Shown here: piece after piece, positions 5,001 through 53,870 of the stretch | Position numbering within the stretch: the stretch's first letter is position 1 | How the letters are laid out: every line of letters begins with the position of its first letter | NCBI RefSeq assembly: GCF_030704535.1 | Contig: NC_081818.1 | Location: 29,344,001 to 29,408,000 of the forward strand | Length of the DNA stretch: 64,000 bases | Direction: 5' to 3' | Source: Vitis vinifera | Taxonomy: Eukaryota; Streptophyta; Magnoliopsida; Vitales; Vitaceae | Notes under the pieces: model-generated | Database searches by the model: none | Seen by the model: the letters and a program-made list of their open reading frames with translations, nothing else | Told to the model about the DNA's origin: nothing | Program-made: the position numbers and the translations under genes

Positions 5001-8000
5001 TTTTCATTCTGATGGACCAAGGAAGAGGCAGGGCCCCTGCAGGCACATAACACCATTAAATACCAGATAACATTAAATACCACCAACCATAATGAAATTT
5101 TCTAATCACAATTCTCAAATTGATGCTATCAGTCAAAATAAACTTGCATTAACTAGATCATAACAACAAAGAGATGTTTAGTTGCATAATTTTTAACAAG
5201 TTTACCATTAAAAAGAAATGTAAAAAACAAAAAAAAAACAAAAAATGTTCTTGTAATATTTTTTTTTAGATAAGTGTGCGCATATATATTACGAGGCAAA
5301 AAGCCACAAAGCATACAGGAAGTATACAAAGTAGCCTAAGCAAAAACAACACTCACCACCCCTTAGGGAACGGCAAGTCATTACAAAAAACCTAAAAGCA
5401 AAGAGGACTCCTCTCCCATATACACCCTAACCCAACTCCACAAGTTACAAACAAAAGAATTCTTTATTTTCTGAATAGCAAGAGAGCCCCCCCTGAAAGC
5501 TAATCTATTTCTCTCCTTCCAAACCGTCCAAAAAATACACAACGGAATGGAAGTCCAAATCATTTTCATCTTTCTCCCCACAAAAGGGCCCCTCCAACTG
5601 ACTAACATCTCTTTGACTTTCTCTGGGAACACCCAATTAGCCCCAAACAAGGCCAAGACAATCTCCCAGAGAACCCTTAAAACTGTACAGTGTAAAAGAA
5701 TATGATTTACATTTTCCTCTTCACAACCACACAAAAAACACGATTTGGAAGATGTCAGCCCTGTCTTTGAAGCCTGTCCAAAGTTAGGACCTTCTCCCAA
5801 GAAGCCTCCCATGCAAAAAAAGCAACTTTGGTTGGGACCTTGTCCACCCAAATGCTCTTTTTCGGGAAGGTAATGACATTAGGGTCTGTCAACAGCTTGT
5901 AAGCATCTCTAATCCGAAAGCGGCCGTGTCCCCCTCCTTTCCATATCATTGAGTCCTCTTCATGAGAAGTCCTCAAATCCCTCAACATATGCAACAACTC
6001 TTCTAGGGCGTCCAGCTCCCAATCATTAGAGTTTCTAGAGAGTCTTATGTTCCAACCTCCTTGACCAAGGCTAGAATCCCACATCTCATTTACCGAGGCA
6101 TTCCTTTGGGCCGCCAAAGCAAACAACCGGGGAAAAGCTTGGGACAACACCTCATTTCCGCACCAATGGTCAGTCCAGAAACTAACCTTAGTCCCCTTTC
6201 CCACTTTGAACTCTATATTATCCCAACACCAAGACGACTCCTTCAAGATATCCCTCCAAGCCCCACCCCAAACGTTCCGCGAGCCTCCTTTGTTCTCCAA
6301 CCAAAACCCACATGGCCATACTTCACCCCAATCACCTTCCTCCAAAGGATTTCTTCCTCAAAGGCAAACCGCCAAATCCATTTGCCCAACAAGGCCTTAT
6401 TCAATATGTGCTACAGCGCTAGCATAAAATGTGATCCACCCAATTGTGTTGTTTGGTTGAAGACAAGAAATTAGCAACAGGGGAACTTTCCTTTCACATC
6501 TCAATTGCACTGGGGCTTTACTGGAAAATCGAATGGAATTTTAAAACATGAAACTCATCCAAAAACATGATCTACAAGCATTGCAACATCGGACAGTATT
6601 CTTATACTTCATTTAACAGATAACATAATCCAAATGGCTCTAAGCAACCCATGACCATGTAAACAATTAAGAAGATGATACGAAGATAAAAACCTCAATT
6701 TAGTAATTCAAAGGTGTATCTCATCCACAGTTTCACAAATATTATATTTACATTTGCTTAACATTCTATAACATTCAACTAGCAATATTAGAATGTTGAG
6801 GAAGAGATGGTGGAATTAGCAACCAAATCAAGAGCCTGAAAGAATTTAATCCTCAAAGCATCTTGAATTAAAATTAGATAGCATGAATCACACCTTTATT
6901 TTTATAAAGAGGCTTGATTGAGCTGTCTTAAAGCATTGGCCATCAGAAATGCACCTTCATGATCCAATGAGCACCAAACCATCAATTATCAGCTCAAAGT
7001 AAAAAATTAACAGCAAAACCAGTGGATTACTGCAAAAACTGCATTAGCTCGATCAGACACTATCTGATCGAATTGTTGGAACTTGATCCATAAAGATCCA
7101 ACTTCAGGTTTTGACAGGGTTTTCCAGGTGCTGCAACTTCAGCCTTCTTTCTTTCTATGGTTTGTGCTTGCACACACTTCCTGTGTACTTGGGTTCAGTC
7201 CCTGTGACGGTTTTAATGGCGTTTGCTTACTCATTTAGGGATAGCATAGGTTGCTAGCCAGAAGATTTTATAGCAATACAATTATCCAGATGACAATGCA
7301 TTGACCATCTACATAGAAGGTGGGGTCGAAGGAGGACATACTGCTTCTAATAATGAAATAACATAATTTGAGTTGCTCACAACTCAATGAAAACATCCCA
7401 AATAATGTATGCTAATAAACACACGCATCAAAAAAGTACTAATGGTCAAATCCTAAAATTTGAACATATACATATGTGTGTGTGTGTGTGTGTGTGTGTG
7501 TATCAATTGTAAATGCTCATCTGTTCAAAATTTAGGATTCGACCATATGATTAATTTTTATAATCACTTCAGGAAGCCAAGAAGTCAGTCCACATTCAGT
7601 TCTTTTCCAACCATTGGAAATTCTCCTTCAGATTGTGAATGATCATCTGTTCAAAATTTAGGATTCAACCATATGATTAATTTTTATAATGCATGATCCT
7701 GTTTCACATGATACTATAAAGTGATGAATAATATTGACTTGAGCACATCATGTCTTTATACATGTAACAAGTTTCCACTCCTTAAATACTTGGAAAATTC
7801 TAAATCCCAACTGGTATTGTTTTAAACTCATCCCATTCTCCTTCAGATTGTGAATGATCATCTGTTCAAAATTTAGGATTCAACCATATGATTAATTTTT
7901 ATAATGCATGATCCTGTTTCACATGATACTATAAAGTGATGAATAATATTGACTTGAGCACATCATGTCTTTATACATGTAACAAGTTTCCACTCCTAAA

Positions 8001-23700: not shown

Positions 23701-26413
23701 TTTTTATGTATGTGCCTTTTCACTTGCAAAAACTTATTTTATTACCTTCTGACAGATATTGGAAGAATAGAAATAAGAATGAAAAATAATTTGAATTGTT
23801 TTTTAGAATGAAAATAAAAATCAAAAGTTCGGTATTATTTTTAGTTGTAAGTTTAATGGCCGTCTTGATCTTGAACGCATTTACATTATTTAAAAAAAAA
23901 CTCATAAATATATAATATTAAAAATTATTTTCCCTTTCAGTTGTTATTATAATCAAATTAGATTAATAAAAAATAAAAAATAAACTAATTTTTTACTTCT
24001 TAAAAGCTAATCTAAATTGGATAAAAATAAAAACAAGTACTCTTATTTGGGAAATACTTTGATAATTTTGAATTTTGCAAAACATGACTTACTTCATTTT
24101 AAACATATTAGAATCAAGATTTACACTATGTTTGGTTCTCGAAAATTTTGTATGAAAATGTGAGTGAGGAAAAGAAAATAAAGAGAAAAAATAGAATAAA
24201 ATAAAAAATAAATTCAAAGTTAATAAATTAATTTTATATGTTTTTTAAAATTTATTTCATTTGTTTTCTTTCACTATATAAAGACTATATAATTTTAAAA
24301 TGCATAAATTTATAATTAATTTTAATTATTTTTGTATTTTTCATAATAAAATAAAATAAAATATAAAAATACTATTTTTTTTTCTTTCTTTAATACTTTT
24401 CAAAAACCAAAATAGTTCTAAAGATTTAGTAACTTAATTTCAATGAAATAAATTTTTTTTCGCTATTATTTCTATTATTTTACTTATTTTATAAAAAAGA
24501 AAAAAATAATAAATATTATAGTTTATTATCTTATATTTATAGTTTTTAATTAGAAATGTCACAATGGAATTGAAAATAGAGCCCAGTAGCTCAAAAGCAT
24601 GAGTAGAGTAGATGTAACTTTAAATAAATAAAAATATAAAAATAATAATAATAATAATAATAAAAACCCACCTTTATGATAAATATAAAAAAAGCAACCA
24701 GATGCATGAAGGTGAGGCCATAATGATTAATGACTGAGAGGAGTGGGGAATGTGAGAAAAAAAGAGAAGCCACGTGCCATCACGTGGATGGCTACATTTT
24801 TACATGCGGCTGTAATTATTAGCTTAATAAATCCCCATGCAATCATCCAAACACCTGTTTTCCACTTGCCCCCCTCTTGGATTTTCTTGTAAATTGAATT
24901 CCCTCAGAATTCTCAGAAAAGCTTTTGGTTTCCCAACTACTCTCTGTTTGGGAATTTTCTAGGAAACCCTCTGCCTCTCAGGCTCTGGGAGTTGTTGTAA
25001 GTTGTAACAGAAACAGAGAGGAAAATCAAATTAAAAAATTGGTGCTGTCACCAACTTTCTGGATTGGAAAATCAATTTTGCTGTTTGGTAATTAGGGTGG
25101 AAATTAGGAAGAGATTTTTTTTTTCAAAAGCTACAATAATTGGGAGCTTTGCCTAATTTTAATTACTTCTTAAATGATTTTTTCTTTAGTATTTTATTTC
25201 TTTATTTTTATGGTATTTAAATATGAAAATTACTCTTTTAAGTATTTTTTTTCTTTTATAGTATTTTTAAAAAATGATTTTTTATTACTTTTTCCATATT
25301 ACCCAAAATGTATAAAAAAATCATTTTTTAAGTTTTTTATTATTTTATTTTAATGCTTTCTTGAACTAAACGGAATATGAAGGAATGTACTAAAAAAAAA
25401 GGAGATATTTGAAGTAGTATATATAAATAATTTGTTAACTTTTTTTTCTTCTAATTTTCTTCTTTCCCTTGCCATTTCCTTCAATAATATGAAAAAAAAA
25501 TCTAATAAAATTGCTATGGAAAAGAATGGGGAATGCTAAAAGATTTTTTCTGTTAAATAAACATATATTTTTTAAATAGTGTAGTGTTTGTTTGATATAT
25601 TTTTATTTTAAAAATAGGAAATAAAAAATATATCCGAATGAATACTAGATGTTAGTTTGGATATATTTCCATTTTATGTTTTTAAAATAAAAAATAATAA
25701 TAGCAACTTTAATTTTTTATATTTTTTAAAATTACTTATAAAAATGTTAGCAATTGAAATAATAATTTTTTTAAAAAAATAATAATTTATAAAAATTATT
25801 ATCTTAAATTTATATATAAAAAAATCTTGAATTGTAATTTTTTAAAAATAGAAAATAACTAACATTTTACACAACTTTTTTAATGGACAACCAAGTAATA
25901 ATTTTTTCCCTTACCCTTCCTTTTTTAAATGGATTGATTCACCAAAAGATAACATTGACTTGAGGGAGGGAAAGGTGTGGTATCTCTTCTCTACCACACT
26001 TCTCCTTTTCAATGGCTGTCTCTCCTCTTTGGATTTTTCCCTTGTAACCCAATCATGAATTTCCAAAAAAGAAAAAAGAAAAAAGAAAGTTCACATTGGG
26101 ATTGCCTTCTTTGCCACTCCTTTAACCAACAATGATTTCAACTTTTGTTTTTATTTTTCTCATTTGTAGTGGTGAATATGTAAATTCCAATTTAATATTA
26201 TATTTATATTCTCAAACGACATTCTTCCCACTTACACTTCCAAACCGACAAATCTGGATTGGGAAAATATATTTTTAATGATAGCGGGATGAAAAATGAA
26301 CCCTGATGTCATTTATAACGACTCAGATGTTGTCCACTCAAAAAAAATATTAAGTATTTGAAACTCGTTTTTAAAATTTTGTAATTTGACCGAGCATCCG
26401 TTATCGAAAGCCT

Positions 26414-27246
26414 CCCAAATTGGGACTTTTCTCAATAGTACAGTAGTTTAAAAAAGTTATGCTTAAATTATTATAGTAGAAGAAGTTATTACAAATATAT
26501 GGTAGTTTTTGCCACATAGGAGAGAGGAGAGAGGGTGAGAGAGGAGAGAGGAGAGAGGGTGAGAGAGAGGAGAGAGGAGAGAGGGGATAGGAGATAGGGT
26601 GATAGGATATTATAAAAGGGAACTCGTCTCTTGAAGAGACGAGTTCCATGAAAAAAAAAATATATATTTTTTTAAAAAAATTCCCATTTACTCAAGGGAA
26701 CTCGTCTCTTCAAGAGACGAGTTTCATGAAAAAAGACAAGGGAAAGACGAGTTCCCAGGGAAAATTTTTTTTTTTTTAAATATATTTTTTATTTAAAAAA
26801 AATCCCAAATTAAATAAAAAAAAAATTTTCCTAAAGGGAACTCGTCTCTTTGGGAATTTTTTTTTTTAAATATATTTTTTATTTAAAAAAAATCCCAAAT
26901 TAAAAAAAAAAAAATTCTTAAAGGGAACTCGTCTCTTGAAGAGACGAGTTCCCATGTAAAAAAAAATATATTTTTTTTAAAAATATATATATTAAAAAAA
27001 AAAAAATTCCTAAAGGGAACTCGTCTCTTCAAGAGAGGAAAAAAATTATTATTTTTTTTTAAATATATTTTTTGTTTAAAAAAAAATTTCCTAAAGAGAA
27101 CTCGTCTCTTCAGGAAAAACAATATTTTTTTTTAAAAAAAAAATCCCAAATTAAAAAAAAAAAAAAAAAAAACAAATTTTTTTTAAAATATAATTTTTTT
27201 TACATGGGAACTCGTCTCTTGAAGAGACGAGTTCCCTTTAGGAATT

Positions 27247-27285
<39 letters not shown>

Positions 27286-27372
27286 ATTATTATTATATAT
27301 ATATATATATATTTTAAAAAAAAAATTTACATGGGAACTCGTCTCTTGAAGAGACGAGTTCCCTTTGGAATT

Positions 27373-27415
<43 letters not shown>

Positions 27416-27563
27416 TTGGGATTTTTTTAAATAAAAAATATATTTTTTTAAAAAAAAAAATTTCCTATGGCAAAAAAAAATTAATTTAAAAAATTGGACT
27501 TTAAGACGAGTTCCCATAGGAAATTTTTTTTTTTTTAAAATATATTTTTTATTTAAAAAAATC

Positions 27564-27612
<49 letters not shown>

Positions 27613-27674
27613 AATTCCAAAGGGAACTCGTCTCTTGAAGAGACGAGTTCCCATGTAAATTTTTTTTTTTTAAA

Positions 27675-27712
<38 letters not shown>

Positions 27713-28567
27713 CAAAAAAAAAAATTCCTAAAGGGAACTCGTCTCTTCAAGAGACGAGTTCCCATGTAAAAAAATTATATTTTAAAAAAAAAAATTGTTT
27801 TTTTTTTTTTTAATTTGGGATTTTTTTTTTTTTAAAAAAATATTGTTTTTCCTATGGGAACTCGTGTCTTGAAGAGACGAGTTCCCTTTAGGAAAATTTT
27901 TTTTAAACAAAAAATATATTTAAAAAAAAATAATAATTTTTTTCCCATGAAACTCGTCTCTTCAAGAGACGAGTTCCCTTTAGGAAATTTTTTTTTTTTA
28001 ATATATATTTTTTTTTACATGGGAACTCGTCTCTTGAAGAGACGAGTTCCCTTTAAGAATTTTTTTTTTTTTTAATTTGGGATTTTTTTAAATAAAAAAT
28101 ATATTTAAAAAAAAAAAATTCCCCAAAAGACGAATTACCTTTAGGAATTTTTTATTTATTTAATTTGGGATTTTTTTTAAATAAAAAATATATTTAAAAA
28201 AAAAAAAAATTTTCCCTGGGAACTCGTCTTTCCCTTGTCTTTTTTCATGGAACTCGTCTCTTCAAGAGACGAGTTCCCTTGAGTAAATGAGAATTTTTTT
28301 AAAAAAATATATATATTTTTTTTCATGGAACTCGTCTCTTCAAGAGACGAGTTCCCTTTTGTAATATCCTATCACCCTATCTCCTATCTCCTCTCTCCTC
28401 TCTCTCACCCTCTCTCCTCTCTCCTCTCTCCTCTCTCACCCTCTCTCCTCTCTCCTCTCTCCTATGTGGCAAAAACTACCATATATTTGTAATAACTTCT
28501 TCTACTACAATAATTTAAGCATAACTTTTTTAAACTACTGTACTATTGAGAAAAGTCCCCCAAATTG
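26414..28567. mobile_element. Foldback Mutator-like element with 9-bp target duplication
   Basis: The 9-bp direct repeat CCCAAATTG occurs at 26414-26422 and 28559-28567 and brackets a 2136-bp element, 26423-28558. The element begins GGACTTTTCTCAATAG and ends with its reverse complement. The arms remain complementary for well over 200 bases: an AT-rich outer part, GAGA/CT-rich tracts, a GGATATTA block, and then the repeated palindromes. The complementarity continues with interruptions toward a centre near 27490, so most of the element is one inverted repeat. Nine-base duplications with long terminal inverted repeats are characteristic of Mutator-like transposons. No transposase or captured host gene is visible, so it is non-autonomous. 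The interior alternates poly-A/T tracts with about a dozen full copies and several partial copies of one palindrome. Confidence 0.8.
26619..28356. repeat. Array of 29-bp GAGACGAG palindromes
   Basis: The half-site GGAACTCGTCTCTT is followed, after C or G, by its reverse complement AAGAGACGAGTTCC. Full copies begin near 26619, 26699, 26924, 27206, 27334, 27623, 27733, 27856, 27951, 28020, 28249 and 28326. Partial half-sites are near 26744, 26838, 27016, 27098, 27502, 28128 and 28218. Spacing is irregular, set by A/T tracts of differing length and by blocks such as TTTAAATAAAAAATATATTT and AATCCCAAATTAA. The copies are near-identical, while the spacers vary. Confidence 0.92.
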
Positions 28568-29751
28568 AATCAGTAGCAACATATGTCACAAGTCTGAAAT
28601 TTTTTTTGATTATTTTACAATATTTAATGGTGAGTTGGTTGAAATTGTGATTAAACTAACTGCTAATTTATTGATTAAAATTTTAAGAAACCCAAATCCA
28701 ATAAATAAAACAATAAAGCAACTAGGAATCGTTCAAAATTAACAGTAACTTTCAAAATAAGGCCAAACATGCCGTTTCATGGAGTTATTCATCCCAGTTT
28801 ACAGGACTGACGGAGTAAATCCAAATCCAAATCCACACAGACTCGCCGTTTCTGGGAAATTATACTCACGCGCCTTGTGATCCCGAGTCAATCCAGTCCG
28901 AAAAGTAACGCGCAGAGGAGGGACCCAGGGCTCCCAATTAATCAACAAAGTCCGGCCACGCGTGAGGGAGAGCGAGTGGGGGAAGTGGCCGCAGCGCCAC
29001 CACGGCCCTTTTTTATTTGGGTTCGTGGGGAGTCAGTCATTCAAGCAATAATTTGCGCGTTCGCCGATCCTCTCCCGCCTGGAATTTTTCCTCCTGTCTC
29101 TCTCTTTCGCTATATGCATTGCTCCAATTTCAGTCTATAATTTCAATTTCGATTTTACTCAAAGAAGGAGTAGAGAGACTGTGATGGGATGAGGTAGATG
29201 GTAGAGAGTTCCGCCCTCGTATTTGACGACGACGACTCTTTTGCTTTTATACTCCTTTTTCTGGAAATTATCTGTTGTCTTCTTGTATTCATTTCAGGCC
29301 TTTTATTGGTAAAGAGGCTGATTTTTTTGGTGTGTGATCGGAGGAGAAAGTGGGTTTCTGTTTGAGACGGTTTTCGAGGTAATTTACTGTGTGTGATACG
29401 TGTGGGTTTCTGTATTTGGATCTATCTGGCCTTTTTTTGCATTATTTGGAGGAAATATGAAGGAAAAGTTGAGATGATTTGATCCGTCAGCGTTTTGACG
29501 ATTCCTTAGAAGAAGCTTCCATTGTTTCAAATTGTTTTTCTTTGATTTCACTAATGCTTCCAAAATTCTCGTGACCTTCTAGAGTTTCTGGTTTTGGGTT
29601 TTGGGTTTTGGATCTTGTGTTTTTCTTCCATAATCTATGGCTATCTTTCCGGTTTATTGAATTGGGAGTGTTTGTGTCCCAATTTTGATTCTTTCGATTG
29701 TGAGTCTGTTTGTATTTTCTTGAATTATTATTGTTTACTGTGGTGGTGGTG
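28568..29751 (+). promoter_or_regulatory. Promoter and leader of the glutaredoxin-like gene
   Basis: The space between the foldback element and the start codon at 29752. A C/T-rich stretch near 29085-29112 and a CTATATGC at about 29110 could mark the core promoter, with a leader of several hundred bases after it. A GAGGTAATTT donor-like site near 29378 leaves room for a 5' UTR intron. An ATG-started reading frame at 28877-29140 has no family features. Confidence 0.4.
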
Positions 29752-31104
29752 ATGGGGTGTGCGAGCTCGAAGCAACCGCGGTGCCGGCATTGCCAGAACT
29801 CGTTTGCGCCGGTGCCGCGAAGCTACTCTATGCACGTCCACCACCCGCCGCAGAGCAAAGGCGACAGCTACCATGTGGTGGCTCTCACCTCCACCACATT
29901 GGGCACTCTCAAGCTTGATACTTCTCATCAAAACCGCAACTCCCATGTCAATGGTACTATCGTTGAAGAAGAAGAGGATAAGGAGAACAAGGTGAATGGG
30001 AATGAGAATGTGAAGGCTGGGGACAAGAAAAACAAGGGATTCTCCATGGGACTCATTGAAGCCAAGACTTGGTCCAGTATGATCAATGAGAAAATTCCCA
30101 AAATTGCTCCGAAAACGCCTATCAGAACCCCTCCGGGCGAGCCCGAGACCATCAATGCCTGGGAGTTGATGGAGGGGCTTGAGGACGCAAGCCCTCTCCG
30201 ATCACCCAATCATCTTCGGAGCTTTTCTTTTGATATTGATCGGAGGTCGATCCCAGCTCCATTTGAGCTCCCCAAGTCGAGATTTCAGGAAAACGGGGAG
30301 GCATCGCCCAGGCCCATGTGGCTGAATTTGGTAGACAGTGAGATGAATCCCAATTCGAATTCAAAGACTGCTGTTCCTGAGTTTGATCCTGAAGTCATTT
30401 CCGTGTTCAGGAAATCACTCCAGGAGCTTCCCTCTGACGACCCTTTCCATATAAAGGATGATGAGAAAGTGCAGGCAAGAGAAGTAATGGATGCGAAGAA
30501 GGTGAACGATGATGAGAAAGTGCAGGCAAGAGAAGTAATGGATGTGAAGAAGGTGAACGACGATTATGATTTTGATGTTCTGGATCATAAGAGCCAGTCA
30601 TTTGCCAAGGACACGGTGGTTGTGTACTTCACAAGCCTAAGGGGAGTGAGGAAGACATACGAGGACTGCTGCCATGTTAGAGTGATTCTAAAAAGCTTGG
30701 GCATTCGGCTGGATGAGAGGGATGTGTCCATGCATTCAGGGTTCAAGGAGGAGCTCAAGGACCTCCTGGGAGACGCCTTTAACAGCGGCAGCCTGCCAAG
30801 AGTCTTCCTGGGAAGAAGGTACATTGGCGGGGCTGAAGACGTACGAAGAATGCATGAGGAAGGCCAGCTAGAAAAGACTCTGGAAGACTCTGAAAAAACA
30901 GAAGCTGGAGGCAATAGTGGCAGCAGAACTTGTGAGGCATGCGGGGATATTCGGTTTGTGCCTTGTGAGACATGTTCAGGGAGCTGTAAAATCTACTACG
31001 AAGGCGATGAAGAAGATGACGATGAAGAGGGTGAATTCGGGTTCCAACGCTGCCCAGACTGCAATGAAAATGGCCTCATTCGCTGCCCCATATGTTGCTA
31101 TTAG
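29752..31104 (+). CDS. Membrane-anchored glutaredoxin-like protein with CxxC-rich C-terminus
   Basis: An intronless gene of 450 residues. The start MGCASSK at 29752 was chosen because Gly2/Cys3 with Ser6 form the N-myristoylation and palmitoylation pattern found in this family; a frame opening 14 codons earlier has no ATG. Residues 1-280 are low-complexity and contain charged stretches. Residues about 287-390 form a glutaredoxin-like fold (DTVVVYFTSLRGVRKTYEDC, then LPRVFLGRRYIGGAEDV). The usual CPYC/CC-type active site is replaced by SLRG, so oxidoreductase activity is doubtful. The C-terminus has four CxxC pairs, at 394/397, 405/408, 434/437 and 445/448, resembling a DnaJ-type zinc-binding module, with an acidic run between them. 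The type is as in Arabidopsis At5g39865 and At3g28850, whose biochemical role is unsettled. Residues 236-252 are repeated as 253-269. Confidence 0.92.
   Translation: MGCASSKQPRCRHCQNSFAPVPRSYSMHVHHPPQSKGDSYHVVALTSTTLGTLKLDTSHQNRNSHVNGTIVEEEEDKENKVNGNENVKAGDKKNKGFSMGLIEAKTWSSMINEKIPKIAPKTPIRTPPGEPETINAWELMEGLEDASPLRSPNHLRSFSFDIDRRSIPAPFELPKSRFQENGEASPRPMWLNLVDSEMNPNSNSKTAVPEFDPEVISVFRKSLQELPSDDPFHIKDDEKVQAREVMDAKKVNDDEKVQAREVMDVKKVNDDYDFDVLDHKSQSFAKDTVVVYFTSLRGVRKTYEDCCHVRVILKSLGIRLDERDVSMHSGFKEELKDLLGDAFNSGSLPRVFLGRRYIGGAEDVRRMHEEGQLEKTLEDSEKTEAGGNSGSRTCEACGDIRFVPCETCSGSCKIYYEGDEEDDDEEGEFGFQRCPDCNENGLIRCPICCY
30457..30558 (+). repeat. In-frame 51-bp tandem duplication in the glutaredoxin-like gene
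   Basis: Units 30457-30507 and 30508-30558 encode DDEKVQAREVMD(A/V)KKVN twice. They differ by one C/T change that alters Ala to Val. The unit is a multiple of three, so the frame is kept. Confidence 0.96.
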
Positions 31105-33420: not shown

Positions 33421-36400
33421 TTACATTTTGTTCCCCTTATTGCCCAAATCAGCTGCTGCGTTTGCTGCACGAGTGAGAATGCCTGAAACCCAAAGAGCTC
33501 CCTTGGCAAAGTAGCTGCTGTTAACAAAGGCATTTGCAGCTGCAACAGTTGTTTTCCCAGTAACCACTGCAGCTGATTTGGTGAACTCCAAAAGCTGGTA
33601 CCTATCTTCCACAGCCCGAGCAGCTTCTACACCTCCATAAATCTTATTTGCAGCTGATTTACTAAACTCTGAAACATGGTACTTTTCATCCACAGATCGA
33701 ACAGCTTCCACGCCAGCATATATCTTATCAGTTAGTCCAATTCTCTTGCTAAGCTCAGCAATCTTGGCTGCTGCAGCAGCAGAGACTCCATGGGCCTCAT
33801 CAAAAGCTTTGGCCTTGATTAGTGCATCTTTGCCCAAAACATACCCCTTGGCGATCATGGTTGTGACCACTTCCTGTGCCACAGTTACTGCTTCTCTGGG
33901 GGTGGTGGCCTGTTAGGATTATAGAAGGTTTGATTGAAAGAAGATAAGAGATTCAATCACAATCAGAACAATGAACTAGATGATATTTCTGACTTCTATA
34001 AATGAAGGTGTGCTCTCTAGAATTAGGTCCATGGAAATTAGACATGATTGCCAAGAACCAGTGTACTAAAGATCGTAAACTATAGAAATTCATGTGAAGC
34101 AACCAAACAATGTCTTCACTCTTGTATGATTTAGTCACCAAGCAACCTGGCTTGTAGTTTGAACTCCTCGTTACTTGACTAAGCACAAACATACAAAAAT
34201 ATAGAGTTGAATCAAATGGGAGAATGATAGAAAATAAAGATTAGAAAAAATCAAACTTTGTTAATAAGGTAAATTTTCTATAAAATCGTGGAGTTTCTGA
34301 ATTACTTGCATAGGTTTTCAAGTTAAGGCCAAGTCACAATGACCTCAAATTATAGGTCCAGCTATCCCACCTGACCAGCAACATTACTGATCTGAGAAAC
34401 TCAGCTGTCCTCTCTGAGTTGTCTGCAAAGGTTAAAAACAGAGCACCATACGATTGCAGAAGATTTCTCAAATCATTCCTGGCTTGTTTATCATATACAT
34501 GGAACCCAAATCCTAACCCACATAGTGCAGTAAATGTCTAATTATAAGCAAAATCCAGCAATAGTAAAGAATTCTCAAATTATTTCTTAAAAATGTTAAG
34601 ATATTTGTTCTTACTTTGCCCTGACTTTCTTATGAAATATGCATCATCACTCTCACAATTACATATATGTTTTGTATTTGCAGTAAAATATCTGATGACA
34701 AATGATTGTCAAATCCTGAATTTGTCTCCAATATGATGTGCACAGCCAGAAAGTAAAAGTTTTGCCTTTCCTAGGAAAATGGTTTACGCAAAATTGAGCA
34801 GCCAAAGCTATATGAGATTGTACTGGGGTATATAATTTTTGGTAGAAAAGCAATGCATACCATAGAGTTAATTTCATAGTTCCAGGAAGAATTACTCCAA
34901 GGATCAGATTCATCTGCGTATATTCCCCAGCCTGATATGCACACTCGTTGATCTACAATTGTGGCTCCCTGAAATATTAGAAATAGGACATGATAAGCAA
35001 ATAAACTGCATGGCTACACATAACACAGACATGCCGAGCTTCGAAATACTAAAGAATGAACATTCATCAAAGCATTTGCTCCAGGGCAAACAAATGACAA
35101 CAAAGTCAATATATTTAGGCAAAAAAATCAACCTTCAAAATAGGGTTATTACAAAAATAAGCCATCGCTCATCAGTCGTTACCAAAAGATGAATGCAAAA
35201 AAAATGGGTCAGTCCTTTTGGTGAAATTCTGATGTTGATCTTATATTGTGTAACAAGAAAAACAAAATATATTTAACCTTAACCAAATAAAAAATAAAAA
35301 AATGGACTAGTTTTATTGTCATGTAGATGCCTATAATCCAATTACCGTGTGAAGTAAGATTAAACCTATAAAGGCTTGCTAAAAGCTTCAAATCAACCTA
35401 TTGGGAGAAACCTAGAGGCGATGATTTAAATCCATACTATCTCCAAACACGATAGCATAATCCCTGTTGAGAGAGAGAGAAAGAAGAAAAACCTTAATTC
35501 TCATTCATGTAATGTCTACTTACAATTGAGAGATATATATATACAAGGCTAGGAGTCCTAACTACCATACATGTGACCTATATTAACAAGGAAAGATAAT
35601 ATACTATAAATACATTATATTCAACACTCCCCCTCAAGCTGGAGCATATACGTCATATGCACCAAGCTTGTTACAAATATATTTAATCCTAGGACCTCTG
35701 AGAGATTTAGTGAAGATGTCTGCTAGTTGATCATTTGAATTGACAAAACTTGTAGCAATACATCCTGATGCGATCTTCTCTCTAATAAAATGACAGTCAA
35801 CTTCAATATGCTTGGTCCTTTCATGAAAGACTGGATTGGATGCAATATGTAATGCGGCCTGGTTATCACAGATGAGTTTCATCTGTTCATCCTTTCCAAA
35901 TCTCAACTCCTGAAGAAGATGTCTCAACCATATGAGTTCACATGTTGCCAAAGCCATAGCTCGATACTCGGCTTCAGCGCTAGATCTGGCCACTACATCT
36001 TGTTTCTTACTCTTCCAAGATATTAGATTACCTCCAATAAAAACACAGTACCCTGAAGTGGAACGTCTATCTGTGGGTGAGCCAGCCCAATCTGCATCTG
36101 TGTAACCAACAACTTGAATATGACCTCTATTCTGGTACAATACACCTTGGCCTGGTGTACTTTTGATATATCGAAGAATACGGATTACGGCATCCCAATG
36201 GCTATCACATGGTGACTGTAGGAATTGACTAACAACACTCACAGGAAAAGAAATGTCTGGACGAGTAATGGTGAGATAGTTCAATTTACCTACGAGCCGT
36301 CGATATCTCCCGGGGTCTCCTAAAGGCTCCCCCTGTCCTGGTACAAGTTTGACATTCGGATCCATAGGTGTGTCTACCGGTTTACAGTCTAACATACCGG

Positions 36401-39400
36401 TTTCTTCCAGGATGTCTAAAGCATACTTCCTTTGGGAAAGGACCACACCAGAACTGGATTGAGCTATCTCAATTCCCAAGAAATACTTGAGTTTCCCCAA
36501 GTCTTTGGTCTGAAAGTGGGTAAAAAGATGTTGCTTTAGTTTCTGAATACCATCCTGATCACTGCCTGTAATGACGATGTCGTCCACATAAACAACCAGA
36601 TAAATACACTGCCCCAAGGAGTTATGATGATAAAAAACTGAATGGTCTGCTGTACTGCGAAGCATGCCAAACTCTTGAACAACAGAACTAAAACGGCTAA
36701 ACCATGCTCGAGGAGATTGTTTCAAGCCATATAGAGAACGGCGTAACCTGCACACTAAACCAGACTCCCCCTGAGCAACAAAACCAGGAGGTTGCTCCAT
36801 ATAAACTTCCTCGGCAAGATCACCATGAAGGAAGGCATTTTTAATATCCAACTGATAAAGAGGCCAAGAACACATAGCAGCCATGGAGAGAAGCAAGCGG
36901 ACAGAAGCAATCTTGGCAACAGGTGAGAATGTGTCACCATAATCAGAACCATAAACTTGAGTATAGCCTTTAGCAACTAAGCGGGCCTTAAGGCGATCAA
37001 CCTGACCATCAGGACCAACCTTAACTGCATAGACCCAACGACAACCAACTGTAGATTTACCAGAGGGTAAAACAACAAGATCCCAAGTGCCATTAGAGTG
37101 CAGAGCAGCCATTTCATCCACCATTGCCTGTCGCCAGCCTGGATGGGAAAGAGCTTCATGGGTGCTCTTTGGAAGAGAAACAGAGGATATAGCAGAAACA
37201 AAAGCAGAATAGGGTGAAGATAATCGATGATAACTCAAAAAATTGTAAATAGGATGAGGATTACGAGTAGAGCGAGTACCTTTCCGAACAGCAATGGGTA
37301 AGTCATTAGGAGAAGGCAGAGCCGGGGCAGGTGAAGCCGAAGGGATAGGAAGTGAGTCAGCAGGTGCCTCAGGAAAAGGGAGAGGAGCAACGACACGAGG
37401 GCGACGATGATAAACCTGAAGTGGTTGAGGGGGCATAGCATCAGGTGGGAAGACAATGGGAATGGGCAAGACTTCAGAAACAGGAAGAGACTCAGAAGAG
37501 GTGGAAAAGAATGGTGAGTCCTCAAAGAAGGTGACATCAGCGGAGATAAAGTATCGATGAGTCTCAAGGGAATAACAACGATAACCCTTCTGAAGTCTGG
37601 AATATCCCAAGAAGAGGCACTTCATGGCTTTGGCGGAAAGCTTGTCCTGTCCAGGAGTGAGAATATGAACAAAGCAAGTACAACCAAAGACACGAGGAGG
37701 AAGGAAATAAAGTGGTTGGTCAGGGAAAAGAAGGGAGTGAGGAATCTGATCGTGTAAGACAGAGGAGGGCATACGATTAATCAAATAACAAGCGGTAAGA
37801 ACAGCGTCCCCCCAAAAACGAAAAGGAACGTGACTATGGAGGAGGAGAGTACGAGCTGTCTCAACAAGATGTCGATTCTTGCGTTCAGCTACCCCATTTT
37901 GTTGAGGAGTATGAGCACAAGAAGACTGATGAAGAATCCCATGATGAGACATAAACGAAGTAAATTGGGCTGAAAAATATTCCCTGGCATTGTCACTGCG
38001 TAACACACGAATAGAAATATTGAACTGGGTTTGGATTTCAGTATAAAATTTCTGGAAAATAGAGAATAACTCAGCTCGATTTTTCATTAAAAATAACCAA
38101 GTACATCGAGAATAGTCATCAATGAAAGTGACAAAATACTGAAATCCTAAAGTAGACGCAGTCCGACAAGGACCCCAAACATCAGTGTGGACAAGCTCAA
38201 AAGGAGACTTTGCCCGATTATTCAAACGCTTTGGGAACGAGACACGAGTATGTTTCCCAAGCTGACATGACTCACACGGAAGCGACGACAAAGTGGAAAA
38301 ACGAGGAACCATCTTCTGGAACTTGGAGAGACTAGGGTGGCCTAGACGATTGTGAATGAGGAGAGGAGCATCAGTGGAAATGCAAACTGCAGGAGATGAA
38401 TCTGAGGTGAGGTGATAGAGGCCTTGAGACTCACGTCCTATGCCAATCGTCTTCCCCGTACTCCGGTCCTGCAAGGTCACAAATTTATCAGAAAAGGTAA
38501 TAGAACAATTAAGAGTACGAGTGATTTTGCTGATGGAAATAAGATTAAAAGGACATTCAGGAGTATAAAGGACAGAAGTGAGAGGTAGAGAAGGCAGAGG
38601 AAGGGCCAAACCAATACCTTTAGCCACAGTTTGAGAACCATTAGCTAAGATAACAGTAGGTAAATCAGTGGTAGTAGTAATAGAGGAGAAAAGATCCTTA
38701 TTACCAGATAGGTGATCAGATGCTCCAGAATCTAGAATCCAGGGTCCAAGAGAAGATGTGTGGGTAAGGCAGGCAGAGGCATTACCAGGCTGGGCAACAG
38801 AGGCAATAGAAGCCTGAGATGTCTGAGATGCGGAGGAGCTCGGAGGCTGAGGCAGCGGAGAATCAGAGGACTGGGCCATATGGGCAGTGCGAGGAGGTCT
38901 TCCATGTAACTGATAGCAACGATCGCGAGTGTGGCCAAGTTTATTGCAATAGGTGCAATGAGGACGTTGGCCTCTCCCTCGGGTACCACTGCGTCCTCCT
39001 CGAGAGGTAGTTTGAGAAACTAACACAGAAGAATCTGAAGCGCTATCAGATGGCAAAGTCTGAGTGGACGAGATACGGAGGAGGCGAGCAAACACATCAT
39101 CCAAGGACGGAACTGATGAACTACCAAGAATCTGATCACGAATAGGCTCAAGATCCGGACGGAGGCCAATAAGAGTAAAGACCATGAAGAACTTGTCAAG
39201 CTGTGTTTGTTGAGCCCCAACATCAGGAGTAAGAGGCATCACAGTCAAGAACTGCTCTTTAAGAGAGGCAATCTGACCAATATAAGTAGATAGATCCAAG
39301 TCCTGTTGGCTGAGATGGACAATAGCAGAAGCCACCTTATAAAGACGCTGGATATCATTCGTGTATAATCCTTTGGCCTGAGTCCAAAATTTAAAACAAG

Positions 39401-41826
39401 TTTTATAGGCCTGAAGATGAAGAAGAATCCGGGGATCAACCGATTGCCATAATACACTACATAACTGTGCATCTATCTTCTTCCACTGTACGCGGTCAAC
39501 CTCAGGGATATCTGCCTCCTGGGTAACCAAGTGATCCTCATATCCTTGACCCATAAACCAAAGTTCAACAGAGGCAGACCAGGAAAGATAATTTTCACTG
39601 CCAACCAATTTCTCTGAGGTAATCATAGGAGATCCAGAGATAACAGAGGTAAAGATCTGATTTTTGGTGGTCATATTCACGTATTTGGATCGAAGAGAGC
39701 CCTAATACGACTTCAGATTGCGGCGTGGCACCACCGAAAAAGGGAGATGGCCTCAGATCGCGACGTGGTACCACCAGAAAGGTAGAAGAACACTTCCCAA
39801 GGCACGTGCAGGGATTGGGGTGGAGAGAAAGTAGCCGGAACTTCGTCGGAAAGGCTGTTTGGAGGGCTGACGGAGACAAAAATCCCCAAAAGAGGTACGT
39901 GCAGGGCTCGGATGGGAGAACCAGGTAGGTAGGGATGCTAGTCGACGGCAGACGAGGCTGGAGGAGGAGGCGCGTCGCCGGAAAAGGCCTCACGCGCCCT
40001 CACGCGCCGGCGCGTGAGATGCAGTCGCCGGCCGGAAAATGGCGCGTGGCCGGCGCGTGGATCCTCTTTTGGTGCCAGTGCCTTCACAAAAGTTGGAGAT
40101 CTCCTCCAGGCGCTCCTTCTGGTATGGTCGGTGTCGGAAAAATAGGTCGCCGGAAAAGTTCGCCGGAAAGTTCGCCGGAAAATTTCGCCGGCGGTGAGTG
40201 GTTTCTAACGACGTTCCGACTGACCGGAAAGTATTGGGAGATGGGGAAGGTGACCGGAATGAAACACGGTCACCGGAAGGTTGCCCGGAGTTGATGACAC
40301 GGGAAACGGGAAACAGGAAAGAATTAGGTTTTCTTCCCTAGCTCTGATACCATGTTGAGAGAGAGAGAAAGAAGAAAAACCTTAATTCTCATTCATGTAA
40401 TGTCTACTTACAATTGAGAGATATATATATACAAGGCTAGGAGTCCTAACTACCATACATGTGACCTATATTAACAAGGAAAGATAATATACTATAAATA
40501 CATTATATTCAACAATCCCGATGCCAAATTTTTATAACTTTGAAAGTGGAAAAGCTCAGCAGAAGTCTTTTTGGACTGATTCCAGAGAAAACTTGAATAA
40601 AGGCCATTCTTTAACTAGAAAGAGAATTTTCCCATTAGAAATGCACTTTTCATACACTAGATTTTCATGTCAGCTGACACCGTGTGGATTACACACAACC
40701 ATGTCTCTGGTTATGCAAAAATCAAGTTGCAGAAATCAAATGACTGTAAAATGAATCATCATCCTTTCTTAGAAACATACAAAAGCAAATAGAACACCAT
40801 CGAGAATTGAGGGAGGCAAGAGACTGGAAATATCGAGGCAGATGATCAGAGAACATGCTAATTCTGTCTTCCATTATAATGAAAGTATTCGTATTTATTA
40901 TCAGGATAGCAGGCAGAAACTTACACTGAGCAAGACAGCAGTTTCGAGAGCATAGAAATCTCTAAATGTCACATAGGCAGTACGAGCACATTCGCCTGAC
41001 CTGTTTTCAGTGGAAACAGCATCTATCTCGATTAGAATCATGTGGATTGTTATCAGATAACAAACATATAAAATTAGCATCAGAGATCATATTGCTTATG
41101 ACTTATGACTTATGAGTACTGCAGGGCCACTGTAGTCAACTGCAAATAGAAGCACATATCAAGCAATGAAAATTCATCTTTTGAATAGTACACAGAACAA
41201 ACTCACAAACACCAAGTTTGAAACAAAATGGAGTAAAATGCTTGAGCCTTAGGAACATCACTTGTCGGTTTTTTAATAAAATTTTGCACTGGACATTGAA
41301 ATCCAGCTAGAATTTTCCAAGAAAAAGGAAAAGGAAAGAAATTTAAAAAAAATTTGAAATATGAGATATTCAAAGTGATGGATTTTATCTAGTGCATGAG
41401 TAAATGACATTCAAACAATGTCTTGTGTGTGTGTGTGTGTGTTTTAATTACTTGGTTTTATTTAATCACAATGATTTCCAACAAGACAATCTAATCGGCC
41501 ATCTAATACTAACGAATGAAGCTTGTGCAAGAGGACTCCAATGAAACCATAAAAACGATCAAAAGTTCTCCCCAACCCCAACTCTGAATGCCAGTCTGCA
41601 TCTAATTGAAACGAAAACAGTCCAAAAGTTCTATAAAATTTATAATGACACAAACAGAGTCATTTAAGAGAAGCTATATAAATTCAGACGTAAATGATTA
41701 CTGAAAATACCTGATAATTTCAAGGTGCTCAATCATCCCACAGTGAATGAAAAAATCATAAACATCCTTCTCTGTTGCTTTAGGAGACAGGCAAGTAACT
41801 TCTGCAGTATAAGCTCCTGGATACAT
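33421..41826 (-). CDS. BPA1-like (binding partner of ACD11) RRM protein, four coding exons
   Basis: Four coding exons on the minus strand: 41711-41826, 40925-41000, 34861-34968, 33421-33909, all GT-AG and in phase, giving 262 residues. Residues 1-75 form an RNA-recognition motif: MYPGAYTAEVTCLSPKATEK (beta-1/RNP2 region), AYVTFRDFYALETAVLLS (RNP1 region) and GATIVDQRVCI. Residues 101-262 are the family's Ala/Lys-rich helical half, with repeated (Y/A)GGVEA(A/V)R-type segments and a GALWVSGILTRAA end. Family knowledge: BPA1 and its relatives bind the sphingolipid-transfer protein ACD11 and influence cell-death control; RNA binding is not established. For exon 2, the acceptor AAACAG before TCAGG was preferred because an upstream AG gives a stop. 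Intron 3 is 5956 bases, of which 5055 are a copia insertion. A 5' UTR exon probably ends at 43064 and is spliced to 41868. Confidence 0.88.
33910..34860 (-). other. Intron 4 (last coding intron) of the BPA1-like gene
   Basis: A 951-base intron between the RRM exons and the helical exon. AT-rich, nothing recognisable in it. Confidence 0.65.
35465..35626 (-). repeat. 3' LTR of the copia element
   Basis: 162 bases, starting TGTTGAGAGAG and ending TATTCAACA, with TG...CA ends. It appears identical to the other LTR at 40353-40514. Confidence 0.95.
35634..39680 (-). CDS. Copia polyprotein (gag-protease-integrase-RT-RNase H)
   Basis: One open frame of 1348 codons. Recognisable parts in order: a UBN2-type gag region, a CCHC zinc knuckle (CTYCNKLGHTRDRC), the protease motif WILDSGASDH, the GAG-pre-integrase GHPSLSKF and integrase catalytic core, reverse transcriptase with YVDDI, and a copia RNase H (ADWAGS, HIEVDCHFI). 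The size is normal for plant copia. It belongs to the retroelement and not to the host gene. Confidence 0.95.
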   Translation of the reverse strand: MNMTTKNQIFTSVISGSPMITSEKLVGSENYLSWSASVELWFMGQGYEDHLVTQEADIPEVDRVQWKKIDAQLCSVLWQSVDPRILLHLQAYKTCFKFWTQAKGLYTNDIQRLYKVASAIVHLSQQDLDLSTYIGQIASLKEQFLTVMPLTPDVGAQQTQLDKFFMVFTLIGLRPDLEPIRDQILGSSSVPSLDDVFARLLRISSTQTLPSDSASDSSVLVSQTTSRGGRSGTRGRGQRPHCTYCNKLGHTRDRCYQLHGRPPRTAHMAQSSDSPLPQPPSSSASQTSQASIASVAQPGNASACLTHTSSLGPWILDSGASDHLSGNKDLFSSITTTTDLPTVILANGSQTVAKGIGLALPLPSLPLTSVLYTPECPFNLISISKITRTLNCSITFSDKFVTLQDRSTGKTIGIGRESQGLYHLTSDSSPAVCISTDAPLLIHNRLGHPSLSKFQKMVPRFSTLSSLPCESCQLGKHTRVSFPKRLNNRAKSPFELVHTDVWGPCRTASTLGFQYFVTFIDDYSRCTWLFLMKNRAELFSIFQKFYTEIQTQFNISIRVLRSDNAREYFSAQFTSFMSHHGILHQSSCAHTPQQNGVAERKNRHLVETARTLLLHSHVPFRFWGDAVLTACYLINRMPSSVLHDQIPHSLLFPDQPLYFLPPRVFGCTCFVHILTPGQDKLSAKAMKCLFLGYSRLQKGYRCYSLETHRYFISADVTFFEDSPFFSTSSESLPVSEVLPIPIVFPPDAMPPQPLQVYHRRPRVVAPLPFPEAPADSLPIPSASPAPALPSPNDLPIAVRKGTRSTRNPHPIYNFLSYHRLSSPYSAFVSAISSVSLPKSTHEALSHPGWRQAMVDEMAALHSNGTWDLVVLPSGKSTVGCRWVYAVKVGPDGQVDRLKARLVAKGYTQVYGSDYGDTFSPVAKIASVRLLLSMAAMCSWPLYQLDIKNAFLHGDLAEEVYMEQPPGFVAQGESGLVCRLRRSLYGLKQSPRAWFSRFSSVVQEFGMLRSTADHSVFYHHNSLGQCIYLVVYVDDIVITGSDQDGIQKLKQHLFTHFQTKDLGKLKYFLGIEIAQSSSGVVLSQRKYALDILEETGMLDCKPVDTPMDPNVKLVPGQGEPLGDPGRYRRLVGKLNYLTITRPDISFPVSVVSQFLQSPCDSHWDAVIRILRYIKSTPGQGVLYQNRGHIQVVGYTDADWAGSPTDRRSTSGYCVFIGGNLISWKSKKQDVVARSSAEAEYRAMALATCELIWLRHLLQELRFGKDEQMKLICDNQAALHIASNPVFHERTKHIEVDCHFIREKIASGCIATSFVNSNDQLADIFTKSLRGPRIKYICNKLGAYDVYAPA
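40353..40514 (-). repeat. 5' LTR of the copia element
   Basis: 162 bases, the same sequence as 35465-35626. In element sense it is followed by the tRNA-Met primer-binding site. Confidence 0.95.
41412..41441. repeat. (TG)n microsatellite in intron 2 of the BPA1-like gene
   Basis: A short TG run (about nine units near 41424-41441) between coding exons 1 and 2. No other element is seen in this intron. Confidence 0.85.
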
Positions 41827-52946: not shown

Positions 52947-53870
52947 GTGGTCTTCGTCAGGCCAAGTATCGGAGTTTTGGAGCTCTTGGGCCTGTCCATT
53001 GGGTTAACTCTTTTGGGCCTTCGTAACATATGTTGTAACGGTATACTTTGTCTATACAGTCACTGTAAAGGAGTTGCCTTATGGAACCCTGCAACCAGGG
53101 AAATCAAGTCTCTTCCAAGGACAACCTTGAGGCACTCGGAATTTTGGGAATGTGCGTTTACATTTACCGCATTTGGTCATGATCCTAAAACCGATGACTA
53201 CAAGGTCTTCAGACTTTTAACCTGTTCAAATATGCCGGGCCGCCCTATCCAGAAAATGGAATTATACACTTTAAGCAGCGATTCTTGGAGACAAATGGAC
53301 TTAGATGTGCCTGCTCACATTGAAGGAACTAATATCATAAACACATGTATGAAGGGAATAAACCACTGGTTGGGATCTGATCATGAGAATGGTGACGTTG
53401 TGATCCTTCTTTTTGACACGAGTGATGAAGTTTTTGGGGTGATACCTTTACCGGATTCTTTTGGCAACCAGCGAGGGGATATTGCAGTGTACAATGAAAT
53501 GATTGCTTTGATTTTTTATCCAAACACGTACACCGACACAGACACAGCCACAGAGAAACGCTTCGATATGTGGGTGATGAGTGAGTATGGGGTTAAGGAG
53601 TCATGGACTAGACTGTTTACAATTGGAGCTGTTTCAGGTGTTGAGAGGCCTTCGGGATTTTGGAGCAATGGCGGAGTTTTCATGGGAAGTAGCAGTGGGG
53701 AGTTGCTTTTGTATAACCACTTCACTCAACAATTTAAGAATCTTGGAGTTTTCTCGGTTGCTAGACGTCCTAGCATTGAAAGATATATGCAGGTTATCAT
53801 TTACAAGGAGAGCCTAGTTTCCCTTAACGGAAGGCATGAAGAGGAAGATGGTATCATTCGTGTCCCATAG
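52947..53870 (+). pseudogene. F-box-associated-domain protein lacking the F-box
   Basis: An open frame of 307 codons. From about residue 30 it is a typical F-box-associated (FBA) domain: CNGILCLYSH, the WNPATREIKSLP motif, FGHDPKTDDYKVFR, VELYTLSSDSWR-like segment, GINHWLG, ILLFDTSDEVFGVIPLPDS, and SWTRLFTIG. In complete family members an F-box of about 45 residues stands in front and binds SKP1 for ubiquitin ligase assembly. Here the first 28 residues are unrelated to it, and no F-box was found in any frame for about 300 bases upstream. It is either a 5'-truncated pseudogene or the last exon of a gene whose first exon I cannot see. The domain itself is not interrupted. Confidence 0.75.

What the first reader, a model, noticed from the sequence alone, without database searches (positions are those of the whole stretch)
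26414..28567. Foldback Mutator-like element built of a repeated 29-bp palindrome
Seen directly: a perfect 9-bp duplication CCCAAATTG, inverted ends starting GGACTTTTCTCAATAG, and arms that remain complementary over much of 2136 bp. About a dozen copies of a GGAACTCGTCTCTT palindrome are spaced by A/T tracts. Known: 9-bp duplications and long terminal inverted repeats define Mutator-like elements. Inference: internal palindromes multiplied through replication slippage or hairpin repair, which makes a nested cruciform-prone structure. If transcribed, it would fold into long double-stranded RNA and feed 21-24-nt siRNA production. The palindromes are far better conserved than their spacers, which hints at recent amplification, gene conversion or a protein-binding role.
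Basis: partly seen in the sequence, partly recalled or inferred. Interest (0 to 1): 0.75.

Follow-up and report, generated by a model that had tools for sequence, protein, structure and literature searches.

The report
Foldback Mutator transposon with palindrome-array arms
This is a short, gene-less copy of a plant jumping-gene family of the Mutator kind whose two long arms are built from many copies of a 31-letter palindrome; larger relatives in the same genome carry a matching transposase, so it is a real but fairly ordinary mobile element.

Summary
Window 26423-28558 (2136 bp) has near-perfect inverted ends, an exact 9-bp duplication (CCCAAATTG), arms that pair along most of their length, and 12 full plus several half copies of a 31-bp palindrome.

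It is one of a dispersed family. Of 38 copies judged, 23 have a perfect 10-bp target duplication, 3 (this one included) a perfect 9-bp one, 3 a 10-bp one with one mismatch, 1 lies in a TA run and 8 have none; mispaired flanks gave 0 of 1406.

The Mutator call now has direct support. A 14-kb relative on contig C7 has the same ends, palindrome arrays, a perfect 10-bp duplication and an open 860-aa Mutator transposase frame, with plant-mobile-domain frames in antisense. The window copy is thus a non-autonomous foldback element of that family.

Arrays are head-to-tail within arms; one relative carries 57 bp of host flank copied inverted beyond its end.

"Palindromes far better conserved than spacers" holds only in part, small RNAs were not testable, and palindrome function is open. 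New member of a known kind; moderate interest.

The parts
26414..26422 (+). left target site duplication CCCAAATTG
26423..28558 (.). whole non-autonomous foldback Mutator-like element, 2136 bp
26423..26534 (+). left outer terminal inverted repeat; the first 110 bp are 92.7% identical to both ends of the transposase-bearing C7 element
   Evidence: (I4, which also takes in one flanking base on each side)
26518..26605 (+). GA-rich minisatellite (AGGAGAGAGG type), overlapping the inner side of the left terminal repeat
   Evidence: (D13)
26618..28356 (.). array of 12 full 31-bp palindromes GGGAACTCGTCTCTTSAAGAGACGAGTTCCC (up to three changes) plus lone halves, separated by A/T tracts; units mostly forward near the left end and reverse near the right end, mixed in the middle
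28369..28465 (-). CT-rich counterpart of the GA-rich minisatellite in the right arm
   Evidence: (D12)
28447..28558 (-). right outer terminal inverted repeat
   Evidence: I4
28559..28567 (+). right target site duplication CCCAAATTG

Best explanation
SHOWN: the family is dispersed, makes 10-bp and sometimes 9-bp target duplications, and shares its ends and palindrome arrays with long copies that encode a Mutator transposase with plant-mobile-domain frames in antisense. INFERRED: the transposase of such copies cuts and pastes the short copies in trans. The arms are minisatellite-like arrays of a unit of very roughly 110 bp (one 31-bp palindrome plus an A/T spacer), mostly head-to-tail within an arm and inverted between arms. 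They probably grow and shrink by tandem duplication and deletion, and an arm is now and then copied from the other by template switching across the foldback. The palindromes may also serve as extra transposase binding sites, but a passive origin is at least as likely.
For: Target duplications: 23 of 38 copies perfect at 10 bp, 3 of 38 at 9 bp, 3 of 38 at 10 bp with one mismatch, 1 in a TA run, 8 none; left-of-one with right-of-another control 0 of 1406. Flanks of the copies share no common insertion context, only a few short or weak matches and the duplicate L006/L010. The C7:141028-155117 copy has the same ends, TAAAATTGAG on both sides, 34 palindromes and an open 860-aa frame: MULE PF10551 2.7e-18, DBD_Tnp_Mut 4.2e-11, SWIM 5.8e-9, and PMD 3.6e-55 and 1.7e-23 on the other strand. 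In the own-genome protein search (58 matches, 53 of 1195 candidates scored), 4 of the 5 best transposase copies lie between convergent family ends, and the fifth (C9:1847649, no stop) lies 4.6 kb inside an exact end. Array growth: L016 has direct repeats of 2.6 kb at 96%, and 12 of its 18 tandem-repeat rows have a period of 111-115 bp. Orientation: forward units left, reverse units right. Inverted copying: L053, 57-bp perfect inverted flank.
Against: Trans-mobilisation is inferred from shared ends; no excision or transposition was seen. 8 of 38 copies show no duplication by the rule (three look decayed by eye), and of 8 further copies with a variant end only 3 have a perfect one. No empty site for the window copy; the one for sister L002 is a paralogue at 68% identity. 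20 of 35 sequences show no strong internal repeat and 10 show inverted ones, so 'tandem duplication' as the main mode rests on unit order. The coding copy C7 is lopsided: 24 palindromes near its left end, 9 in the middle, one near its right end. Benjak et al. report TSDs of grape Mutator families as always 9 nt when found (PMC2528002, section 8 read). Copies came from the top of a similarity ranking, so older copies are under-sampled. The C10 14-kb copy holds a nested Gypsy-type retrotransposon and shows no TSD, so size alone does not mark a coding copy.
Confidence: 0.92

Rival explanations
1. The palindromes are cis-acting binding sites of the family's transposase (a symmetric site for a dimer), amplified because more sites recruit more transposase, as proposed for the repeats in Galileo arms.
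For: 40 of 40 copies examined keep a palindrome within 450 bp of both ends, 36 of 40 within 300 bp. The 8 of 8 fetched copies with a variant end (GTACGG) also carry them, 3 to 29 each, and so do coding copies. Palindrome A/T positions change at 0.2% (12/6146) against 2.0% (86/4209) in the terminal repeats. Precedent: a transposase THAP domain binds sites in repeats inside Galileo arms (PMC3688188, passages read).
Against: Copy number varies from 4 to 31 full units per element in the copies counted with both ends, and common descent alone would give 40 of 40. Substitution in palindromes is lower than in spacers in only 6 of 10 pairs of young copies. Unit turnover also lowers divergence. C7 has a single palindrome near its right end.
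Confidence: 0.35
2. The arrays are a passive minisatellite hitch-hiking in the arms; the perfect palindrome only makes the unit prone to slippage, deletion and template switching.
For: Head-to-tail arrays with higher-order duplications in L016; 259 lone halves beside 492 full units in 34 elements, as hairpin-linked deletion could leave (halves of palindromes broken by indels are counted among them); no excess of compensated changes (3 observed, shuffle mean 2.7, 160 of 300 shuffles reach it). Tetris of Drosophila shows arm repeats turning into satellite arrays (PMC4079207, passages read).
Against: Very low change at palindrome A/T sites and retention near both ends in the 40 of 40 copies examined.
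Confidence: 0.5
3. The arms feed double-stranded RNA and siRNA, and the palindromes are kept or shaped by that (silencing of the kind recalled for Mu killer in maize).
For: The single strand folds nearly end to end. C>T/G>A changes are commoner at CG (49/1756) than at other C/G (30/2634) in palindromes, as methylated DNA would show.
Against: No transcript, small-RNA or methylation data were available. Deamination-type change is normal for any silenced element. No excess of compensated changes that would speak for RNA hairpins under selection.
Confidence: 0.3
4. The structure is an assembly artefact of a collapsed or inverted read.
For: A/T- and palindrome-rich arrays are hard to assemble (general knowledge); none of my calls points to it here.
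Against: Many independent sites with different flanks and their own duplications.
Confidence: 0.02

Closest known systems
Mutator superfamily, MUDR-type group of flowering plants (group 50 in Dupeyron et al. 2019, PMC6446971; passages read)
   Same: MULE transposase with SWIM finger, antisense plant mobile domain, terminal inverted repeats, 9-10-bp TSD as listed for that group
   Different: Arms are palindrome arrays of kilobase length; group placement rests on listed traits, no tree was built
Grapevine Mutavine families (Benjak et al. 2008, PMC2528002; section 8 and passages read)
   Same: Likely the same host species; multi-copy Mutator families of up to 17.7 kb, several with terminal repeats
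   Different: Text reports TSDs always 9 nt when found, and the word foldback does not occur in its main text; I could not compare sequences, so this family may be one of the named ones
Tm1 Mutator/Foldback family of root-knot nematodes (PMC3169594; passages read)
   Same: Composite terminal repeats with variable numbers of tandem motifs, unequal arms, 8-10-bp and mostly 9-bp TSD, coding and non-coding members
   Different: 13-15-bp motif, not described there as a palindrome; Phantom-like transposase; animal host
Tetris foldback transposon of Drosophila (PMC4079207; passages read)
   Same: Long arms with internal tandem repeats that also form kilobase satellite-like arrays, 8-10-bp TSD; compare L016
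   Different: 220-bp unit; copies without conserved ORFs, autonomous partner only presumed in the passages
Galileo (PMC3688188; passages read)
   Same: Kilobase arms with internal repeats; transposase domain shown to bind sites in repeats
   Different: P-element superfamily transposase
MuTAnT of Medicago and FARE of Arabidopsis (PMC4486113 passages read; FARE only as cited there)
   Same: Plant Mutator-like foldback elements, MuTAnT with a coding partner
   Different: MuTAnTs are mostly 200-300 bp, target TA microsatellites, 9-nt TSD; no 31-bp palindrome array mentioned in the passages

Membership tests
Mutator superfamily (MULE) | Mutator-type transposase in a copy with the same ends | tested here: met
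   C7:150030-152609, 860 aa, PF10551 2.7e-18, PF03108 4.2e-11, PF04434 5.8e-9, between family ends with perfect 10-bp TSD
Mutator superfamily (MULE) | Target duplication of 8-11 bp (range as given in PMC6446971) | tested here: met
   9 bp here; 29 of 38 copies with 9-10 bp and at most one mismatch, 8 of 38 none, 1 in a TA run; control 0 of 1406
Mutator superfamily (MULE) | Long terminal inverted repeats | tested here: met
   113 nt at 99%
Mutator superfamily (MULE) | Mobilisation by that transposase | not testable with these tools
   No activity data
Foldback-type element | Kilobase arms, inverted to each other, made of internal repeats | tested here: met
MUDR group 50 of Dupeyron et al. | Antisense plant mobile domain, SWIM finger, 9-10-bp TSD | tested here: met
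   traits as listed in the Table 1 passage
MUDR group 50 of Dupeyron et al. | Place in the transposase tree | not tested
   no tree built
A named Mutavine/Repbase family of grape | Sequence identity to the reference element | not testable with these tools
   reference sequences not held
Rehavkus | PHD finger in the transposase; arthropod or annelid host (PMC6446971) | tested here: not met
   Pfam at E up to 0.01 shows MULE, DBD_Tnp_Mut, SWIM and Transposase_mut, no PHD; host inferred to be a plant

The most novel reading that the evidence does not exclude
The 31-bp palindrome is a symmetric binding site of the family's own transposase. The family has turned its arms, in coding and non-coding copies alike, into arrays of up to dozens of such sites that multiply by tandem duplication and inverted template switching: a plant Mutator lineage evolving by runaway growth of its cis-recognition sites.
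Probability: 0.3. Interest if true: 0.55.

Novelty: new member of a known kind. Interest (0 to 1): 0.36.

Why it matters
It links a foldback element made of palindrome arrays to a transposase-bearing partner in the same genome, so the old question of what the long repeated arms of foldback elements are for could be tested directly: is the palindrome bound by the transposase, and is it needed for movement? It also shows a Mutator family whose commonest target duplication is 10 bp, and one copy (L053) with host flank in an inverted duplication. For genome annotation, such copies are easily mistaken for low-complexity DNA or assembly errors.

Tried and rejected
Tried and rejected: (1) Hairpin-templated correction within each palindrome: compensated changes at shuffle level in the core (3 against a mean of 2.7), and fewer than shuffled at the outermost pair (3 against 13.95). 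(2) 'Every 14-kb copy is a coding copy': the C10 copy holds a nested Gypsy-type retrotransposon. (3) Palindromes absent from copies with the variant end GTACGG: wrong for the 8 of 8 fetched. (4) Rfam on window 26300-28700: no match at gathering scores. (5) Solved structures by sequence for the transposase: none at E up to 0.1. (6) NCBIfam: one hit, IS256 transposase at E 1.4e-9, 37.5 bits against a cut-off of 150. (7) Target-site preference: in 22 sites chosen for a 10-bp duplication the mean GC of the duplication was 0.495 against 0.337 in 500-bp flanks, no clear motif by eye; not pursued. (8) Paper searches: for the half-palindrome strings or MUDRAVI, 58 papers, 20 listed; the two transposon papers among those 20 matched MUDRAVI only. 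Searches on foldback with Vitis and MULE, foldback with Mutator, and Rehavkus or minisatellite (one search listed 20 of 54) showed no title or abstract start that describes this family; I read passages of six papers only. No fold prediction of a protein was run. PF10551 was asked for in the whole genome but the call did not complete.

Full report
What is there. At 26423-28558 lies a 2136-bp element flanked on both sides by CCCAAATTG. Its outermost 113-nt stretch (one flanking base on each side included) is 99% complementary, and inside it stretches of 259 nt (91%) and 132 nt (90%) pair. As one RNA strand it folds at -1352 kcal/mol against a mean of -421 (sd 8) for 12 dinucleotide shuffles, with 895 of 989 pairs joining the two arms. 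It holds 12 full copies (up to three changes) of a 31-bp palindrome, two 15-bp arms round a central G or C. A GA-rich minisatellite lies between each end and the array.

It is a dispersed family. The whole-element search gave 236 matches from 40 scored of 275 candidates, so a lower bound. The 21-base end occurs 129 times forward and 114 times reverse with up to two mismatches (reversed control 1 and 0; 100 places listed), and the exact palindrome at 499 places (control 0). I fetched 40 loci first (L001-L040, top of the ranking); L010 is the same place as L006. Flanks of the copies share no common context: apart from L006/L010 there were seven short or weak matches between loci, and none to the window.

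Target duplications. Of 38 copies judged, 23 have a perfect 10-bp duplication, 3 (window copy, L006, L025) a perfect 9-bp one, 3 a 10-bp one with one mismatch, 1 sits in a TA run, and 8 have none by the rule. Pairing the left flank of one copy with the right flank of another gave 0 of 1406. Left out of the 38: L010 (duplicate), L015 and L037 (one end only) and L030 (no clean right end); L016, L034, L038 and L039 were completed with their far ends (L047-L050). Three of the eight 'none' (L022, L024, L028) look by eye like decayed duplications. Eight further copies with the variant end GTACGG were fetched later: 3 of 8 have a perfect 10-bp duplication, 5 of 8 none exact. So 9 bp is true here, but 10 bp is commoner in the family. 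A range of 8-11 bp is given for Mutator elements in PMC6446971 (passages read).

The coding partner. Convergent ends about 14 kb apart were looked at on C10 and C7 (whole), C9 (nearly whole) and C3 (ends only). C7:141028-155117 has the family ends, TAAAATTGAG on both sides, 34 palindromes (24 near the left end, 9 in the middle, one near the right end) and an open 860-aa frame on the minus strand. Pfam gives MULE (2.7e-18), DBD_Tnp_Mut (4.2e-11), SWIM (5.8e-9) and Transposase_mut (1.2e-7); two of three plus-strand frames match the plant mobile domain (3.6e-55 and 1.7e-23), the third nothing above a cut-off. The first 110 bp of the window element are 92.7% identical to both ends of C7. C9:1138168-1152452 is similar but its transposase frame is split into 585 and 274 aa. 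C10:8375229-8389571 instead holds a nested Gypsy-type retrotransposon and shows no TSD. In the own-genome search with the 860-aa protein (58 matches, 53 of 1195 candidates scored), the five best are on C7, C9 (1847649), C13, C9 (1146425) and C3; only the first two of these five are free of stops. Four of the five lie between convergent family ends (one end of the C3 pair has one mismatch), and the fifth, C9:1847649, lies 4.6 kb inside an exact end whose partner I did not locate. Duplications at four further long copies: C15 perfect 10 bp, C9 and C3 10 bp with one mismatch, C13 none by the rule. Antisense PMD, SWIM finger and 9-10-bp duplication are the traits listed for the MUDR group of flowering plants (PMC6446971, Table 1 passage); I built no tree.

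How the arms are built. Palindromes are directional by their flanks: forward units prevail in the left part of the copies and reverse units in the right (counts per tenth of length, forward 40 48 40 23 28 29 34 14 3 0, reverse 0 3 8 17 19 14 16 38 47 28, unassigned 1 5 5 5 4 3 6 5 5 0; 34 elements). L016, the left 8.7 kb of the 22-kb C13 copy, is head-to-tail; 12 of 18 tandem-repeat rows of that locus have a period of 111-115 bp, and it has direct repeats of 2608 bp at 96% and 1840 bp at 94%. In the 40 copies the spacing of successive palindromes has a median of 118 and a 5-95% range of 77-304. Of 35 sequences, 8 show a direct and 10 an inverted internal repeat of 150 bp or more at 93% or more among the five best printed, and 20 show none. 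In 34 elements there are 492 full units and 259 lone halves, the latter including halves of units broken by indels. Tandem duplication plus deletion is my inference for the main mode. In L053, 57 bp of host flank recur perfectly, inverted, just beyond the other end, in place of a duplication, and L058 shows 155 bp at 85% (2 of 41 copies tested; L033 gave only a 22-bp direct match). That is what template switching from one arm to the other past the element's end would leave; an older element round L058 is an alternative I did not exclude.

Are the palindromes special? For: 40 of 40 copies keep one within 450 bp of both ends (36 within 300; left out there: L010, L026, L030, L034, L035 and one-ended loci); 8 of 8 copies with the variant end have 3 to 29; A/T positions change at 0.2% (12/6146) against 2.0% (86/4209) in the terminal repeats, and G/C positions at 2.3% (102/4390) against 4.2% (62/1464) (31 elements, 61 of 62 ends used, 439 units). 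Against: among five young copies (10 pairs, not independent) the palindromes change less than the 180-bp terminal segments in 9 of 10 pairs, but less than the spacers in only 6 of 10; compensated double changes number 3 against a shuffle mean of 2.7. Units were picked by a mismatch limit, which biases divergence down, though few units lie near the limit. Deamination-type changes are 49/1756 at CG and 30/2634 at other C/G, as expected of methylated DNA. I judge passive turnover somewhat likelier than a binding role.

Empty sites. Joining the flanks of L002 finds C18:6511615-6511829, a paralogue at 68% identity that runs straight across the junction with one copy of the target; two other hits there cover only the right flank. 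The joined flanks of the window copy find only themselves. No second genome of this kind is held.

Known or new. Foldback Mutator elements are known in plants and animals, and arms with tandem repeats in Tm1 (PMC3169594), Tetris (PMC4079207) and Galileo (PMC3688188), passages read for each; MuTAnT (PMC4486113, passages) is a plant Mutator foldback family with a coding partner. Grape Mutator families were catalogued in 2008 with TSDs always of 9 nt when found (PMC2528002, section 8 read); whether this family is among them I could not test. Novelty: new member of a known kind, with an unusual palindromic unit.

Noticed in passing
L053 (G000:C5:1989750-1991650): Copy whose two flanks are a perfect 57-bp inverted repeat instead of a target duplication, which suggests inverted copying past the transposon end into host DNA.
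   Followed up: partly
L058 (G000:C1:3252140-3253880): Copy with only 31 bp of terminal repeat, inside flanks that are inverted repeats of each other over 155 bp at 85%.
   Followed up: partly
L016 and G000:C13:7406638-7428592: 22-kb copy whose first 8.7 kb is a head-to-tail palindrome array with higher-order repeats, like a satellite being born inside a transposon.
   Followed up: partly
G000:C9:1847649-1850228 and G000:C7:150030-152609: Two full-length transposase frames without stops, reported at 100% identity (rounded) to each other, suggesting recent movement of coding copies.
   Followed up: no
window 29710-31104 (+): Glutaredoxin-like open frame (Pfam Glutaredoxin and GRXCR1-2_C) about 1.2 kb beyond the element's right end, so the element may lie in its upstream region.
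   Followed up: no
window 35634-39680 (-): 1348-aa open frame matching Copia-type retrotransposon domains.
   Followed up: no
window 187-1086 (+), 2029-2703 (-), 5755-6345 (-), 52947-53870 (+), 61765-62916 (-): Frames matching protein kinase, kinase C-terminal part, zf-RVT, F-box-associated and ABC transporter families (8 of the 18 ORFs were scanned).
   Followed up: no
L041/L042 (G000:C10:8375229-8389571): Family copy carrying a nested Gypsy-type retrotransposon with a 1493-aa open frame; similar short frames recur on both sides of it, as LTRs would give.
   Followed up: partly
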